Shown here: in pieces, positions 1,931 through 45,530 of the stretch | Layout of the letters: every line of letters starts with the position of its first letter | How positions within the stretch are numbered: position 1 is the stretch's first letter | NCBI GenBank assembly: GCA_002840095.1 | Contig: PGZL01000002.1 | Span: 217,872 to 281,871, forward strand | DNA: 64,000 nucleotides | Direction: 5' to 3' | Source of the DNA: Gammaproteobacteria bacterium HGW-Gammaproteobacteria-1 | GTDB taxonomy: Bacteria > Pseudomonadota > Gammaproteobacteria > Thiohalomonadales > Thiohalomonadaceae | Notes under the pieces: model-generated | Told to the model about the DNA's origin: nothing | Seen by the model: the letters and a program-made list of their open reading frames with translations, nothing else | The model's database searches: none | Made by a program: the position numbers and the translations under genes

Positions 1931-3241
1931 ATGAACCGGACCGAATTTGCCAAACGACGCAAACGCCTGATGCAGGCCATGGGCACGGACGCCATCGCCA
2001 TCCTGCCTACGGCGCAGGAGCGTATCCGCAGCCGCGACACCGAATACCACTTTCGCGCCGACAGCGACTTTTACTACCTGACCGGCTTTCCCGAACCCGA
2101 AGCGGTGGCGGTGCTGATCCCCGGCCGCGCCCATGGCGAGTTCCTGCTGTTCTGCCGCGAGAAGGATCCGGAGATGGAAACCTGGCACGGCCGCCGCGCC
2201 GGGCTGGAGGGCGCGCAGGAACTGTACGGCGCCGACGACGCCTTTCCCATGGCGGATATTGATGAAATCCTGCCGGGCCTGCTGGAGAACAAGGATCGGG
2301 TCTACTACACCATGGGCGCGCACCGCGATTTCGATCGCCAGGTGATGGACTGGATCAACGCCTTGCGCAAGAAGTCGCGCGCCGGCGTGCACACGCCGGG
2401 CGAGTTCGTGGCCCTGGATCACCTGCTGCACGACATGCGCCTGTACAAGAGCGCCGCCGAGGCCGCGGCGATGCGCAAGGCGGCGAAAATATCCAGCCAG
2501 GCCCATCTGCGGGCCATGCGCGCCTGCCGCCCCGGCGTGCAGGAATACCAGCTGGAGGCGGATATCCTGCACGAGTTCATGATGCACGGCGCGCGCTTCC
2601 CCTCCTACAACTCCATCGTCGGCGGCGGCGCCAACGGCTGCATCCTGCACTACACCGAAAACAGCGATGAACTGCGCGACGGTGATCTGGTGCTCATCGA
2701 CGCCGGCTGCGAATACGACTATTACGCCGCCGACATCACCCGTACCTTCCCGGTCAACGGCAAGTTCTCGCCCGAACAGCGTGCGCTGTACGACCTCGTG
2801 CTGGAGGCCAATCATGCCGCCATCGAACAGGTCCGGCCGGGCAATCACTGGAACCAGCCCCATGAGGCGGCGGTGAAGGTGCTGACCCAGGGACTGGTGA
2901 AGCTGGGCCTGCTCAAGGGACGGGTGAGCCAGTTGATCAAGGATCAGGCCTACCGCAGGTTCTATATGCACCGCACCGGCCACTGGCTGGGCATGGATGT
3001 GCATGACGTGGGCGAATACAAGGTGGGCGAGGAGTGGCGCGTGCTGGAGCCGGGCATGGTGCTCACCATCGAGCCGGGCCTGTACATCAGCCCGGGCAAG
3101 GGTGTGGCCAAGAAATGGCACAACATCGGCATCCGCATCGAGGACGACGTGCTGGTCACGAAATCGGGCCATGAGGTGCTGACCCGGGATGCGATCAAGG
3201 ATGCCGATGAGATTGAGGCGTGGATGGGGGGAGGAAAGTGA
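1931..3241 (+). CDS. pepP: Xaa-Pro aminopeptidase PepP (aminopeptidase P)
   Basis: Dimanganese pita-bread peptidase that removes N-terminal residues preceding proline. The 436-residue length equals the family norm. The N-terminal domain begins [13 protein letters not shown]. The metal ligands are visible: D257 ([10 protein letters not shown]), D268 (DITRTF), H351 ([10 protein letters not shown]), E381 (EPGLYIS) and E404 (RIEDDV). It is in an operon with ygfB and ubiH. The stop codon TGA (3239-3241) is also the first three bases of the first heptamer of the hairpin repeat that follows. Confidence 0.96.
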
Positions 3242-3311
3242 CAAGTTACAAGTGGCAAGTTGCAAGAAAACCCTCTTGTCACTTGCGACTTGTCACTTGT
3301 AACTTGCAACT
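3238..3311. repeat. Heptamer hairpin element, CAAG family
   Basis: The left arm has four 7-bp units of form NNRCAAG (TGACAAG, TTACAAG, TGGCAAG, TTGCAAG). The right arm has five units of form CTTGYNA (CTTGTCA, CTTGCGA, CTTGTCA, CTTGTAA, CTTGCAA). A 6-9 bp centre separates the arms, which are reverse complements. It fills the pepP-ubiH gap, contains the pepP stop codon, and ends at the ubiH start codon. No ORF is encoded. Confidence 0.85.
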
Positions 3312-4625
3312 ATGACTTACGACATTGCCATCATCGGCGGCGGCATGGCCGGCGCCAGCCTGGCGCTGGCGCTGAAGGAGTTGCCGTTGTCCATCGCCCT
3401 GGTGGAGGCGGTGCCGTTCGAGTCGGCGGCGCAGCCCGCCTTCGATGCCCGCGCCATCGCCCTGGCGGCCGGCTCGCAGCGCATATTGCAGGCCATGGGC
3501 GTATGGCCGGCGCTGGCGGCGCGCGGCGTCACCGCCATCGAGCACATTCACGTGTCCGAGCGCGGCGGTTTCGGCAGCGCGCGGCTGGAGGCGGCAGAAG
3601 AGAATGTGGCCGCCCTCGGTTACGTGGCGGAGGGACGCGTCATCGGCGCGGCGCTCACCGCGGCGCTGGCGCAGTGTCCCAATGTCGAACTGTTGTGCCC
3701 CGCCGAGCTGGCTGCCGTGCAGGTGGCCGGCGACGCGGCCGACATCCAGCTCAGCCATGGCGGCGCAGTGCGTAACCTGCGCGCGCGCCTGTTGGTGGCG
3801 GCCGACGGCGGGCGTTCCACCGTGCGCGAGCAGGTAGGCGCGCCGACCTGGGAACTGGGCTATGGCCAGACCGCGGTGATCGCCACCGTCACCACCGATC
3901 GTCCCCACGGCAACACCGCCTATGAGCGTTTCACCGACACCGGCCCGCTGGCCCTGCTGCCCTGCGATCCGCCGGCCGATGGCGATGCTGCGCTGCATGG
4001 CCGACGCTGGTCGCTGGTGTGGACGGTGCGCGACGGTCAGGTGGATGAGATGCTGGCGCTGGACGATGCGGAGTTCCTGCGGCGGCTGCAACAACGTTTC
4101 GGTTACCGGGCCGGGCGTTTCGTGCGCGCCTCGGAGCGGCATGCCTATCCGCTGGCCCTGCGCTTCGTGCGCGAGGCGGCGGGCGAGCGCATCGCCTACA
4201 TCGGCAACGCCGCCCACGCCATCCACCCGGTGGCCGGCCAGGGCTTCAATCTCGGCCTGCGCGACGTGGCGGCACTGGCCCAGGTGATCGCCGGCGCCGT
4301 GGGGCGCGGCGCCGACATCGGCCGCCTGGCGGTGCTCAAGGACTATGCCGCCTGGCGCCGTCCCGATTATCTGCGCACCGCCGCTTTTACCGACGGCCTG
4401 GTGCGCACCTACTCCAACAACCTGCCGCCGCTGAAACTGGCGCGCAACCTCGGCCTGCTGGCCCTGGACGCCCTGCCGCCGCTCAAGCATCTGCTGGCGC
4501 GGCAGTCCATGGGGCTGGTCGGCCATCTGCCGCGCTTGGCCTGCGGGCTGGCGGTGACGCCGCCGCCCGCAGTTACGAGTTTCGAGTTTCGAGTTTCGAA
4601 AACCACAGGCAGCGGGGAGTCGTAA
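3312..4625 (+). CDS. ubiH: 2-octaprenyl-6-methoxyphenol hydroxylase UbiH (ubiquinone biosynthesis)
   Basis: FAD-dependent monooxygenase of the UbiH/UbiI/UbiF family that hydroxylates the ubiquinone ring. Seen: N-terminal Rossmann motif DIAIIGGGMAGASLALAL, the ADGGRSTVREQ segment, and the C-terminal FAD motif GNAAHAIHPVAGQGFNLGLRD. At 437 residues it is longer than E. coli UbiH (392). The last ~15 residues (SFEFRVSK onward) are encoded by the repeat element between ubiH and ubiI, so they are probably not functional. UbiH rather than UbiI is assigned from order after pepP, as in E. coli. Confidence 0.9.
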   Translation: MTYDIAIIGGGMAGASLALALKELPLSIALVEAVPFESAAQPAFDARAIALAAGSQRILQAMGVWPALAARGVTAIEHIHVSERGGFGSARLEAAEENVAALGYVAEGRVIGAALTAALAQCPNVELLCPAELAAVQVAGDAADIQLSHGGAVRNLRARLLVAADGGRSTVREQVGAPTWELGYGQTAVIATVTTDRPHGNTAYERFTDTGPLALLPCDPPADGDAALHGRRWSLVWTVRDGQVDEMLALDDAEFLRRLQQRFGYRAGRFVRASERHAYPLALRFVREAAGERIAYIGNAAHAIHPVAGQGFNLGLRDVAALAQVIAGAVGRGADIGRLAVLKDYAAWRRPDYLRTAAFTDGLVRTYSNNLPPLKLARNLGLLALDALPPLKHLLARQSMGLVGHLPRLACGLAVTPPPAVTSFEFRVSKTTGSGES

Positions 4626-4675
4626 CGCATGGACCATCAGACCGAAACCCGAAACCCGAAACTCGAAACTGCAAC
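4571..4675. repeat. Heptamer hairpin element spanning the ubiH-ubiI junction
   Basis: First arm, 4571-4599: units of CGAGTTT. Second arm, 4640-4675: units YCGAAAC (CCGAAAC three times, then TCGAAAC). The second arm is the reverse complement of the first over about 30 bp with few mismatches. Between the arms lie the ubiH stop (4623-4625) and the ubiI start (4629). The first arm is translated as the UbiH C-terminus and the second as the UbiI N-terminus. Confidence 0.85.
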
Positions 4676-5876
4676 GTATGACGTTGCGATCATCGGCGGC
4701 GGCATGGTCGGTGCCACGCTGGCCTGTGCCCTGGGTGGTTCGAAACTGCGTGTGGCGGTGGTGGAACCGGTGGCCGCGCCGCGCCACTTTCCGGCCGGCG
4801 ATTTCGACATCCGCGTCAGCGCCATCACCCGTGCCACGCAGAATGTCTTTGCCGCCGTCGGTGCCTGGGACGGCATGCTGGAGCGGCGGGTGCAGCCCTA
4901 CCAGGCCATGCACGTGTGGGATGCGCTGGGCAGCGGTTCCATTCATTTCGACTGCACCGAACTGGGCGAGCCGGATCTGGGCCACATCGTCGAGAACCGC
5001 GTGATCCTGGCGGCACTGCTGGATCGCATGGGCAGTTTCGGCAACATCGATTTTCTCTGCCCCGCCGGCGCCACCGGCATGCAGCTGGGAGAGGATGCGG
5101 CGCAGCTGTTCCTGGCCGATGGCCGCACCGTCGAGGCGAAGTTGCTGGTCGGTACCGACGGCACCACCTCCTGGGTGCGCGAGCAGGCAGGCATCGACAC
5201 CACCGGCTGGGCCTATGATCAGAGTGCGGTGGTGGCCACGATGAAAACCTCGCAACATCACCAGGATGCCGCCTGGCAGCGCTTCCTGCCCAGCGGCCCG
5301 CTGGCCTTTCTGCCGCTGCCCGGCGGTTACAGTTCCATCGTCTGGTCCACCGGCCATGAGCGGGCCGAGGCCCTGTGTCACATGCCGGCGTCGCAATTCC
5401 TCGACGAGTTGCAGCTCGCCTTTGGCGATGCCCTGGGACGGATGGAGTCGGTCGGTCCGCGCGGTGCCTATCCGCTGCGCCTGCAGCATGCCGACGCCTA
5501 TGTGCGGCCGCGCCTGGCCCTCGCCGGCAATGCCGCCCACACCCTGCACCCGCTGGCCGGGCAGGGACTGAACATCGGCGTGCTGGACGCGGCGGCGCTG
5601 GCCGAGGTGCTGCTGGGCGCGGGGCGCCGGGACGTGGGCAGCCTGCCGCTGCTGCGCCGCTACGAACGCTGGCGCAAGGGCGACAACATCGCCATGCTGG
5701 CGGCGATGGACGGCTTCAAGCGTGTGTTCAGCAACGATGCGGCGCCGCTGGCCCGGTTGCGCAGCGCCGGGCTGGCGCTGGCCGATCGGCTCGGCCCGGT
5801 GAAGAATTTCTTCGTGCGCCGCGGCATGGGGCTGGCCGGCGATCTGCCCGGGTTGGCGCGCACGCCACCCCCTTGA
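4629..5876 (+). CDS. ubiI: UbiI/VisC-family ubiquinone hydroxylase
   Basis: Second flavin hydroxylase of ubiquinone synthesis, paralogous to the upstream gene. Seen: VAIIGGGMVGATLACAL, GTDGTTSWVREQAG and GNAAHTLHPLAGQGLNIGVLD. The 415 residues fit the family. The only in-frame ATG is at 4629, so the first ~16 residues (DHQTETRNPKLET) come from the repeat arm and the conserved fold begins at TYDVAIIGGG. It might instead be UbiF or UbiM; family membership is secure but the hydroxylation position is not. Confidence 0.87.
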   Translation: MDHQTETRNPKLETATYDVAIIGGGMVGATLACALGGSKLRVAVVEPVAAPRHFPAGDFDIRVSAITRATQNVFAAVGAWDGMLERRVQPYQAMHVWDALGSGSIHFDCTELGEPDLGHIVENRVILAALLDRMGSFGNIDFLCPAGATGMQLGEDAAQLFLADGRTVEAKLLVGTDGTTSWVREQAGIDTTGWAYDQSAVVATMKTSQHHQDAAWQRFLPSGPLAFLPLPGGYSSIVWSTGHERAEALCHMPASQFLDELQLAFGDALGRMESVGPRGAYPLRLQHADAYVRPRLALAGNAAHTLHPLAGQGLNIGVLDAAALAEVLLGAGRRDVGSLPLLRRYERWRKGDNIAMLAAMDGFKRVFSNDAAPLARLRSAGLALADRLGPVKNFFVRRGMGLAGDLPGLARTPPP

Positions 5877-9177: not shown

Positions 9178-9332
9178 GGCGGCGGCGGCCGCTTTTTCCT
9201 CCACGACACTCCGGTCTGGTGCCGTTTAAAACCAATGGCTTAGAGTAGTTTTGAGGGCGCGCCCGGCACCGGCAGCGCGCCTCCTCTCGCCTTCAATCCC
9301 GGTTCCGGGTTATAGTTCCGCACCGACCCTGG

Positions 9333-9492
9333 AACCGTGGGAGAGAGCAGGCACCAGGCCTGCCGCCGAAGGCGCAAACCGCCCGGATACTCGCTCAGGC
9401 AAAAGGACCGCGATACTCCGGTCGGCTCTGGAGAGAGACTGCATGACAGTCCACCGAAGGGGTCAAGCTCTCAGGTGCAAAGGACAGAGGGG
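9333..9492 (+). promoter_or_regulatory. Tandem glycine riboswitch
   Basis: Two consecutive aptamers. The first (about 9333-9411) has GGGAGAG, CGCCGAAGGCGCAA and CTCAGGCAAAAGGACCG. The second (about 9412-9492) has GGAGAGAGACTGC, CACCGAAGGGGTCAAGC and CTCTCAGGTGCAAAGGACAG. The CCGAAGG...CTCAGGCAAAAGGAC pattern is diagnostic of glycine riboswitches, which usually raise expression of glycine cleavage genes when glycine binds. Downstream are a terminator hairpin and the lipA-gcvT-gcvH-gcvP genes, exactly the expected regulon. Confidence 0.95.
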
Positions 9493-9528
9493 CGACGCAA
9501 GGCTGGGGCCTTGCGTCGCCCCTTTTTT
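9489..9528 (+). terminator. Rho-independent terminator in the glycine riboswitch expression platform
   Basis: A perfect 14-bp stem (9489-9502 with 9509-9522), 6-nt loop and TTTTTT at 9523-9528. The 5' side of the stem overlaps the last bases of the second aptamer (AGAGGGG), so glycine binding can plausibly compete with terminator formation and allow read-through into lipA-gcv. Confidence 0.9.
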
Positions 9529-12192: not shown

Positions 12193-12366
12193 CGCCGCAG
12201 AGACGCAGAGACGCAAAGACGCTGAGAAAAGATGGGGTCCGCAAATAAACGCAAATGGACGCGAATAAATGCCATGGTGAGCACGCGCACCTATTTGCGT
12301 TTTTCGCGTTCATTCGCGGATTCCTTTCTGGTTCTTTTCTCCGCGCCTCCGCGTCTCTGCGGCAGA
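12193..12366. repeat. Nested hairpin: CGCAGAGA-family element enclosing a 10-bp-unit element
   Basis: Outer arms 12193-12228 (CGCAGAGA, CGCAGAGA, CGCAAAGA, CGCTGAGA) and 12334-12366 are reverse complements with 8-bp units. Inside them, 12237-12271 (CGCAAATAAA, CGCAAATGGA, CGCGAATAAA) and 12291-12324 form a second pair of complementary arms with a 10-bp period. The whole fills the gcvH-gcvPA gap. One element appears to have arisen or inserted within the other. Confidence 0.82.
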
Positions 12367-45367: not shown

Positions 45368-45404
45368 TATTGGGGAACTTTGCGAGCGGAGTGGGTCATC
45401 GATT

Positions 45405-45530
45405 CAAGGTTCAAGGCTCAAGGTTCAAGGCTCAAGGTTCAAGGTTCAAGGTTCAAGGTTCAAGGCTCAAGGCTCAAGGCTCAAGGCTCAAGGCTCAAGG
45501 CTCAAGGCTCAAGGCTCAAGGCTCAAGGTT
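45405..45530. repeat. Tandem array of 18 CAAGGYT heptamers
   Basis: Exactly 18 head-to-tail copies of a 7-bp unit, each CAAGGTT or CAAGGCT. The T/C position reads T C T C T T T T C C C C C C C C C T in order. There are no other substitutions and no spacers. It lies between the groEL terminator and the convergent anti-sigma gene. An ORF through it is repeat translation. Confidence 0.95.

What the first reader, a model, noticed from the sequence alone, without database searches (positions are those of the whole stretch)
4571..4675. A repeat element provides the C-terminus of UbiH and the N-terminus of UbiI
One arm (4571-4599) is read in frame as the last UbiH residues (SFEFRVSK), and the complementary arm (4640-4675) as UbiI residues 5-16 (TETRNPKLET). 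Stop and start codons lie in the loop, three bases apart. Insertion or expansion of the element at a gene junction seems to have rewritten both protein ends without killing either.
Basis: seen in the sequence. Interest (0 to 1): 0.7.

Follow-up and report, generated by a model that had tools for sequence, protein, structure and literature searches.

The report
Repeat hairpin rewrites two protein ends
A dispersed DNA hairpin made of repeated 7-letter units sits between two ubiquinone-synthesis genes and codes for the tail of one enzyme and the head of the next, having replaced an older hairpin of different sequence that sister species still carry at the same spot.

Summary
Two arms of tandem TTTCGAG heptamers (4569-4598 and 4643-4672, 90% complementary) enclose a 44-nt loop with the ubiH stop (TAA, 4623-4625), a Shine-Dalgarno-like GGGGAG and the ubiI start (ATG, 4629). 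The last 18 UbiH residues and first 15 UbiI residues come from the element. No relative examined shares them, and relatives without a hairpin have short ends. Both genes evolve under purifying selection (dN/dS 0.14-0.21).

The "insertion at a clean junction" reading needs amending. Three sister species already carry a hairpin here, built from another heptamer (NNRCAAG), which encodes the UbiH tail there too. In this genome arms and loop both differ. The ancestral ubiI ATG, just beyond the right arm, became GCA, and initiation moved into the loop.

The element belongs to a large unnamed family. In 1.13 Mb of this genome, 84 non-coding inverted repeats have periodic arms, hug stop codons and are nearly absent between divergent genes. 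Junctions occupied in two species coincide beyond chance, although the repeat unit usually differs. Closest precedents are heptameric inverted repeats in Xanthomonas and MITE-type ORF fusions. How elements are replaced is unknown.

The parts
4569..4598 (+). Left arm: tandem heptamers (TTACGAG)(TTTCGAG)n, read in frame as UbiH AVTSFEFRVS
4643..4672 (+). Right arm: CGAAACC/CGAAACT heptamers, reverse complement of the left arm, read in frame within UbiI residues 5-14; its last two bases overlap the codon (GCA, 4671-4673) that stands where sister species have the ubiI ATG. Up to 29 nt of it are identical to other dispersed copies in the genome
4599..4642 (+). 44-nt loop holding the ubiH stop, a Shine-Dalgarno-like GGGGAG and the ubiI start; no detectable homology to the loops of the sister species' elements (p 0.36-0.72 against shuffles)
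4569..4622 (+). Element-encoded UbiH C-terminus, residues 420-437 (AVTSFEFRVSKTTGSGES); the UbiH-specific profiles end at residues 401-404
4623..4625 (+). ubiH stop codon TAA in the loop
4614..4619 (+). Shine-Dalgarno-like GGGGAG, 9 nt before the ubiI ATG, unpaired in the predicted fold
4629..4673 (+). Element-encoded UbiI N-terminus, residues 1-15 (MDHQTETRNPKLETA); nearly all profile matches start at residues 13-18 (one at 5)
4671..4673 (+). Position of the ancestral ubiI start codon (ATG in G001, G002 and G003), here GCA (Ala15)
3312..4625 (+). ubiH, 2-octaprenyl-6-methoxyphenyl hydroxylase
   Evidence: NCBIfam TIGR01984 and NF004356 above cut-off; dN/dS 0.14-0.18
4629..5876 (+). ubiI-like, UbiH/UbiF/VisC/COQ6-family hydroxylase
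   Evidence: TIGR01988 above cut-off; dN/dS 0.16-0.21
3236..3311 (+). Sister element of the NNRCAAG class filling the pepP-ubiH junction; its first TGA is the pepP stop; same class in G001 at the orthologous junction

Best explanation
The feature is one copy of a dispersed, REP/MITE-like family of hairpins whose arms are tandem arrays of a 7-bp unit (TTTCGAG). Such hairpins settle just downstream of stop codons and often fill whole gene junctions. An older hairpin of the NNRCAAG heptamer class already stood between ubiH and ubiI in the ancestor of this genus and already encoded the UbiH tail. In the lineage of this genome it was replaced as a unit, arms and loop, by a TTTCGAG hairpin. The right boundary of the change removed the old ubiI ATG (now GCA). 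An in-frame ATG with a Shine-Dalgarno-like GGGGAG in the loop became the start, three bases after the new ubiH stop. Both enzymes kept their catalytic cores, and stop and start sit together in the loop, which should preserve translational coupling. Shown: anatomy, sister-species states, loss of the ATG, absence of the tails elsewhere, purifying selection, dispersal of the family. Inferred: replacement by a copied element, use of the loop ATG, coupling, near-neutrality. Unknown: the enzyme or process that copies and replaces elements.
For: Arms, stop, SD and start in place. Sister species G001, G002 and G003 have ATG-[T/N]-YDVAI/YDIAI directly after the right arm of an NNRCAAG hairpin; G000 has GCA there and no other in-frame ATG/GTG/TTG before the ATG at 4704, inside the FAD-binding motif. 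UbiH tails: VTSDK* in G003 and G002, VTSDKEEVRV...KLAT* in G001, short in element-free G005, G013 and G017. Sister loops are homologous to each other (p <= 0.013) but not to the G000 loop (p 0.36-0.72). Right arm matches other dispersed copies with up to 29/29 identity. TTTCGAG arrays are abundant only in G000, G003 and G002 (440, 94, 78 hits; 7 or fewer in every other genome of the family). At least 7 copies share one loop, GGCAAGAGTGTGTCGTGGCC, so elements do disperse. dN/dS 0.14-0.21.
Against: No donor copy carrying the ubiHI loop was found elsewhere in the genome, so copy-in of an intact element is not directly seen. No target-site duplication or mobilising enzyme was identified; Y1_Tnp (RAYT) copy number does not follow heptamer abundance and the two RAYT genes checked have no heptamer nearby. 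Use of the loop ATG is inferred from sequence only. The genome is a 70-contig assembly with 3.3% estimated contamination.
Confidence: 0.65

Rival explanations
1. Gradual in-place turnover: the NNRCAAG hairpin (units such as TTTCAAG) mutated to TTTCGAG and spread through both arms by slippage and hairpin-templated repair, while the loop drifted beyond recognition. No element was copied in.
For: The units differ by as little as one base (TTTCAAG/TTTCGAG). Other junctions show CAAG/CGAG or CGCAAAG/CGCAGAG differences at the same place, one with a similar loop (211763). Arm-length change at a fixed site with an alignable loop is visible at C44:53964.
Against: At ubiH-ubiI the loop has no detectable homology to sister loops that are still recognisably related to one another. 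Up to 29 nt of the right arm are identical to dispersed TTTCGAG copies.
Confidence: 0.22
2. The hairpins are selected regulatory structures (3'-end stabilisers, terminators or translational couplers), and class changes keep the structure while the sequence varies; the protein tails are a by-product. (Not exclusive of the best explanation: it concerns function, not origin.)
For: Location bias: 2 of 84 non-coding elements lie between divergent genes, and 85 of 103 flanking stops are within 20 nt. The same polarity recurs in both species; the opposite form is not above the shuffle noise. Sites are retained between species despite class change (OR 21.6, p 3e-11; OR 8.8 in length-matched junctions).
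Against: No terminator-like stem with a T run at this locus. Several relatives have ubiH-ubiI with no hairpin at this junction. Avoidance of promoters alone can produce the location bias, as for REPs.
Confidence: 0.2
3. Annotation artefact: UbiI really starts downstream or at a non-standard codon, so only UbiH was extended.
For: Sister species start at the residue aligned with Ala15.
Against: No ATG, GTG or TTG lies in frame between 4629 and the ATG at 4704, which would remove the GxGxxG FAD-binding motif; the ATG at 4629 has a Shine-Dalgarno-like sequence at suitable spacing.
Confidence: 0.06
4. Assembly or binning artefact at a repeat, or chance.
For: Draft assembly; another repeat array in it contains an N run.
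Against: Both reading frames stay open, flanking genes are syntenic with a complete relative (182 conserved junctions), and a shuffle of the contig gives no such inverted repeats.
Confidence: 0.03

Closest known systems
GGGAATC heptameric repeats of Xanthomonas (Rehm et al. 2015, PMC4692102)
   Same: 7-bp tandem units, often paired as inverted repeats (70-75 cases per genome), mostly intergenic, mostly between the same genes in two relatives with extensive length and sequence variation
   Different: G-rich and quadruplex-forming there; here several non-G-rich unit classes (TTTCGAG, NNRCAAG, CGCRGAG, CGCAAAG, CGCGAAT) coexist, differ at one site between species, and one copy supplies a stop and a start codon
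MITE-type small mobile repeats with ORF fusions: RPE, RU-1/ERIC, RU-2/YPAL, RU-3 (reviewed by Delihas 2007, PMC2229807)
   Same: Small hairpin-forming dispersed elements read in frame as parts of host proteins, some shown to stay active
   Different: Those are families with their own fixed sequences and terminal inverted repeats, several with target-site duplications; here the arms are tandem heptamers and one element feeds two adjacent proteins
REP/BIME elements and RAYT (TnpA-REP)
   Same: High copy number, palindromic, extragenic; downstream of genes and rare between divergent genes (the last from general knowledge)
   Different: No tandem units in REP arms; no RAYT association found here
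TAACTGA heptamer repeats of Beggiatoaceae (MacGregor 2015, PMC4679880)
   Same: Abundant intergenic heptamers found across distant phyla
   Different: Direct repeats mostly just upstream of start codons, with a single inverted case

Membership tests
Heptameric tandem inverted repeats (Xanthomonas GGGAATC kind) | Tandem 7-bp units in both arms of an inverted repeat | tested here: met
Heptameric tandem inverted repeats (Xanthomonas GGGAATC kind) | Multicopy, mostly intergenic, retained between the same genes in relatives | tested here: met
Heptameric tandem inverted repeats (Xanthomonas GGGAATC kind) | GGGAATC-type, quadruplex-forming G-rich unit | tested here: not met
   Unit is TTTCGAG
MITE | Dispersed copies sharing a defined sequence beyond the repeat units | tested here: inconclusive
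   A sub-family of at least 7 copies shares a loop; the ubiHI copy shares only its right arm with others
MITE | Target-site duplication and termini of a known transposon | tested here: inconclusive
   No clear duplication seen by eye at filled and empty sites such as C44:228421; no systematic search made
MITE ORF fusion | Element read in frame as part of a conserved host protein | tested here: met
REP/BIME with RAYT | Associated Y1_Tnp gene flanked by the element | tested here: not met
   Copy number does not track abundance across 20 genomes; two Y1_Tnp genes (one own, one in G001) have no heptamers within 1.5 kb; the other two own copies were not inspected
REP/BIME with RAYT | GTAG- or CGTC-tagged short palindrome | tested here: not met
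   Sequence of 4569-4672; tags taken from the title and abstract of PMC3733652
Known structured RNA (Rfam) | Match to an Rfam family | tested here: not met
   No match at the locus

The most novel reading that the evidence does not exclude
Heptamer- to decamer-armed hairpins form a widespread, unnamed system in which the site is inherited but the sequence is periodically replaced by the currently active unit class of the species, through an undescribed element-for-element replacement mechanism. Replacement at an operon junction can therefore repeatedly re-encode the end of one protein and the start of the next.
Probability: 0.25. Interest if true: 0.75.

Novelty: new variant of a known kind. 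Interest (0 to 1): 0.5.

Why it matters
It is a compact natural case in which one repeat copy supplies both the end of one ubiquinone-pathway enzyme and the start codon of the next, with sister species showing the earlier state. The wider pattern, conserved sites with changing unit sequence, makes the question of how small hairpin repeats spread and homogenise directly testable with a five-species genus, and warns that terminal residues of annotated proteins in such genomes may be repeat DNA.

Tried and rejected
Chance: rejected. Rfam RNA: none at the locus. RAYT mobilisation: copy number does not follow heptamer abundance and there are no heptamers near two RAYT genes. Donor copy with the same loop: not found. 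Intrinsic terminator: none found at the locus. Gapped-hairpin z-score as occupancy measure: a length-matched test was not significant (p = 0.2), so a motif-polarity score was used as well; its false-positive rate on shuffled junctions is 7%, and both results are reported. Literal heptamer strings in papers: none. Cross-phylum scan: the GAGTTTC array occurs in many phyla, but a strict test found a GAAAC-type inverted partner in only 7 of 114 stretches, although several Alcanivorax copies have a partner arm of related ACTCGNN units; a shared cross-phylum origin is not claimed. The first gene caller favoured an antisense shadow ORF over ubiH/ubiI and was retrained on codon-position GC.

Full report
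What is there. The window carries pepP (1931-3241), ubiH (3312-4625) and a ubiI-like gene (4629-5876) in one direction. Between ubiH and ubiI lies an inverted repeat, arms 4569-4598 and 4643-4672, 30 nt, 90% complementary, loop 44 nt. Both arms are tandem heptamers. The loop holds GGGGAG (4614-4619), the ubiH TAA (4623-4625) and the ubiI ATG (4629). The left arm is read in frame as UbiH residues 420-429 and the bases after it add eight more; the right arm falls in UbiI residues 5-14. The predicted RNA hairpin has -47 kcal/mol (z -4.2), with the GGGGAG in the apical loop.

More than chance. A search for arms of 18 nt or more found 47 inverted repeats in this 356-kb contig and none in a dinucleotide shuffle of it. 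The heptamer string has 440 hits genome-wide against 7 for the reversed control.

Orthologues. In relatives with no hairpin at this junction (for example G005, G013, G017, G053), UbiH ends within a few residues of the LARG/LACG core motif and UbiI begins a few residues before the YDV/FDL motif. In G001, G002 and G003, of the same genus, the junction holds a hairpin made of another heptamer (NNRCAAG), the UbiH tail is already element-encoded (VTSDK* in G002 and G003; a tail of about 30 residues running through the whole hairpin in G001), and ubiI starts with the ATG just after the right arm. In G000 the codon at that place is GCA and no ATG, GTG or TTG lies between 4629 and the ATG inside the FAD-binding motif, so the start has most likely moved into the loop. 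G004 has an ACCACGGAG-type pair, G011 and G018 have CGC-type units and G014 and G019 have GAGATAC-type units at the same junction. Both cores are under purifying selection (dN/dS 0.14-0.21).

Replacement rather than first insertion. NNRCAAG in three sister species and TTTCGAG only in G000 makes NNRCAAG the simpler ancestral state; the UbiH tree places G000 next to G003, with weak support. The loops of G001, G002 and G003 are alignable with each other, while the G000 loop is not alignable with any. Up to 29 nt of the G000 right arm match other dispersed TTTCGAG copies exactly. So arms and loop seem to have been exchanged together. A copy with the same loop was not found, so the donor is not identified.

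The family. In 1.13 Mb of this genome (C44, C1, C3) the scan kept 90 inverted repeats with arms of period 6-11; five lie inside genes (GC-rich, probably unrelated), one lies at a contig end without two flanking genes, and 84 are non-coding. Classes include NNNCAAG and TTTCGAG heptamers, CGCRGAG octamers, CGCNAAG octamers/nonamers and CGCGAAT decamers. They lie between tandem or convergent genes (82) and rarely between divergent genes (2 elements for 123 such junctions; Fisher p 6e-4). The median distance to a flanking stop is 9 nt, 19 of 103 flanking stops are overlapped, and of 65 flanking starts only that of ubiI is overlapped. The ubiH-ubiI copy is thus the only one in the sample that feeds two proteins. 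The genes in this survey were called by a simple script, so individual starts are approximate. The 5' arm carries the CAAG, CGAG, CGCAGAG or CGCAAAG form; the opposite polarity stays at or below the shuffle noise level. Genome-wide counts differ by species: TTTCGAG 440, 94, 78, 4, 2 in G000, G003, G002, G001, G004; CGCAGAG 195, 268, 55, 1, 0 (its reversed control is itself partly matched, so these counts are less clean); CGCAAAG 30, 10, 14, 42, 0; NNRCAAG 226, 168, 162, 232, 8. At least seven TTTCGAG copies share one loop, which shows dispersal.

Sites persist, units change. Contig C44 is syntenic with G001:C1:270-670 kb, with 182 conserved junctions. By a motif-polarity score (7% positives on shuffled junctions) 27 non-divergent junctions are occupied in both species, 23 only here, 5 only in G001, 92 in neither (odds ratio 21.6, p 3e-11); with gaps of at least 50 nt in both, 27/16/5/26 (odds ratio 8.8, p 1e-4). 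A stricter hairpin score gave the same direction (tandem junctions p 9e-4) but was not significant in the length-matched subset (p 0.2). Among pairs occupied in both (29, two of them divergent), 9 have the same dominant unit class and 20 differ, most often CGCRGAG against CGCAAAG or CAAG against CGAG. Junction length is itself set by the elements, so the length-matched test is conservative.

Mechanism and limits. The best-supported account is replacement of a resident hairpin by one of another unit class, with the right boundary removing the start codon and an ATG in the loop taking over. Coupling of termination and re-initiation three bases apart is inferred. The agent is unknown: RAYT copy number does not follow heptamer abundance and two RAYT genes have no heptamers near them. 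Gradual turnover in place is the main rival, and is suggested at other junctions.

Comparison. Rehm et al. 2015 (PMC4692102, read) describe GGGAATC heptamers in Xanthomonas, often as inverted repeats, mostly kept between the same genes with variable length and sequence; this is the nearest precedent. Delihas 2007 (PMC2229807) reviews small mobile repeats read in frame in host proteins. MacGregor 2015 (PMC4679880) describes TAACTGA direct repeats. No paper held contains the literal unit strings tried, which is weak evidence of novelty. I file it as a new variant of a known kind.

Noticed in passing
window 3236-3311: NNRCAAG hairpin fills the pepP-ubiH junction; the pepP stop is the TGA of its first TGACAAG unit, and G001 has the same arrangement.
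   Followed up: yes
window 12204-12361: Nested elements: a CGCAAAT/CGCGAAT decamer hairpin lies in the loop of a CGCAGAG octamer hairpin, which suggests insertion of one class into another; the G001 junction has no such element.
   Followed up: partly
window 45404-45528: About 18 head-to-tail copies of TCAAGGC (95% match), not examined further.
   Followed up: no
G000 C44:18414-18598 (outside the window): TTTCGAG arms enclose an intrinsic-terminator-like stem-loop with A and T runs on both sides; the TAG stops of both convergent genes overlap the arm ends.
   Followed up: partly
G000 C46:1675-4079: A second UbiH/UbiI-like pair (37-41% identity to the ubiI of the window); may be a paralogous pair or contamination in this 4.2-Mb assembly.
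   Followed up: no
L122, L174, L208 and other loci: GAGTTTC arrays of up to 43 units in distant taxa; in several Alcanivorax copies they pair with a downstream arm of ACTCGNN units, so the hairpin kind may be widespread.
   Followed up: partly
window 9328-9497 and 425-606: Tandem glycine riboswitch and 6S RNA (Rfam); ordinary.
   Followed up: no
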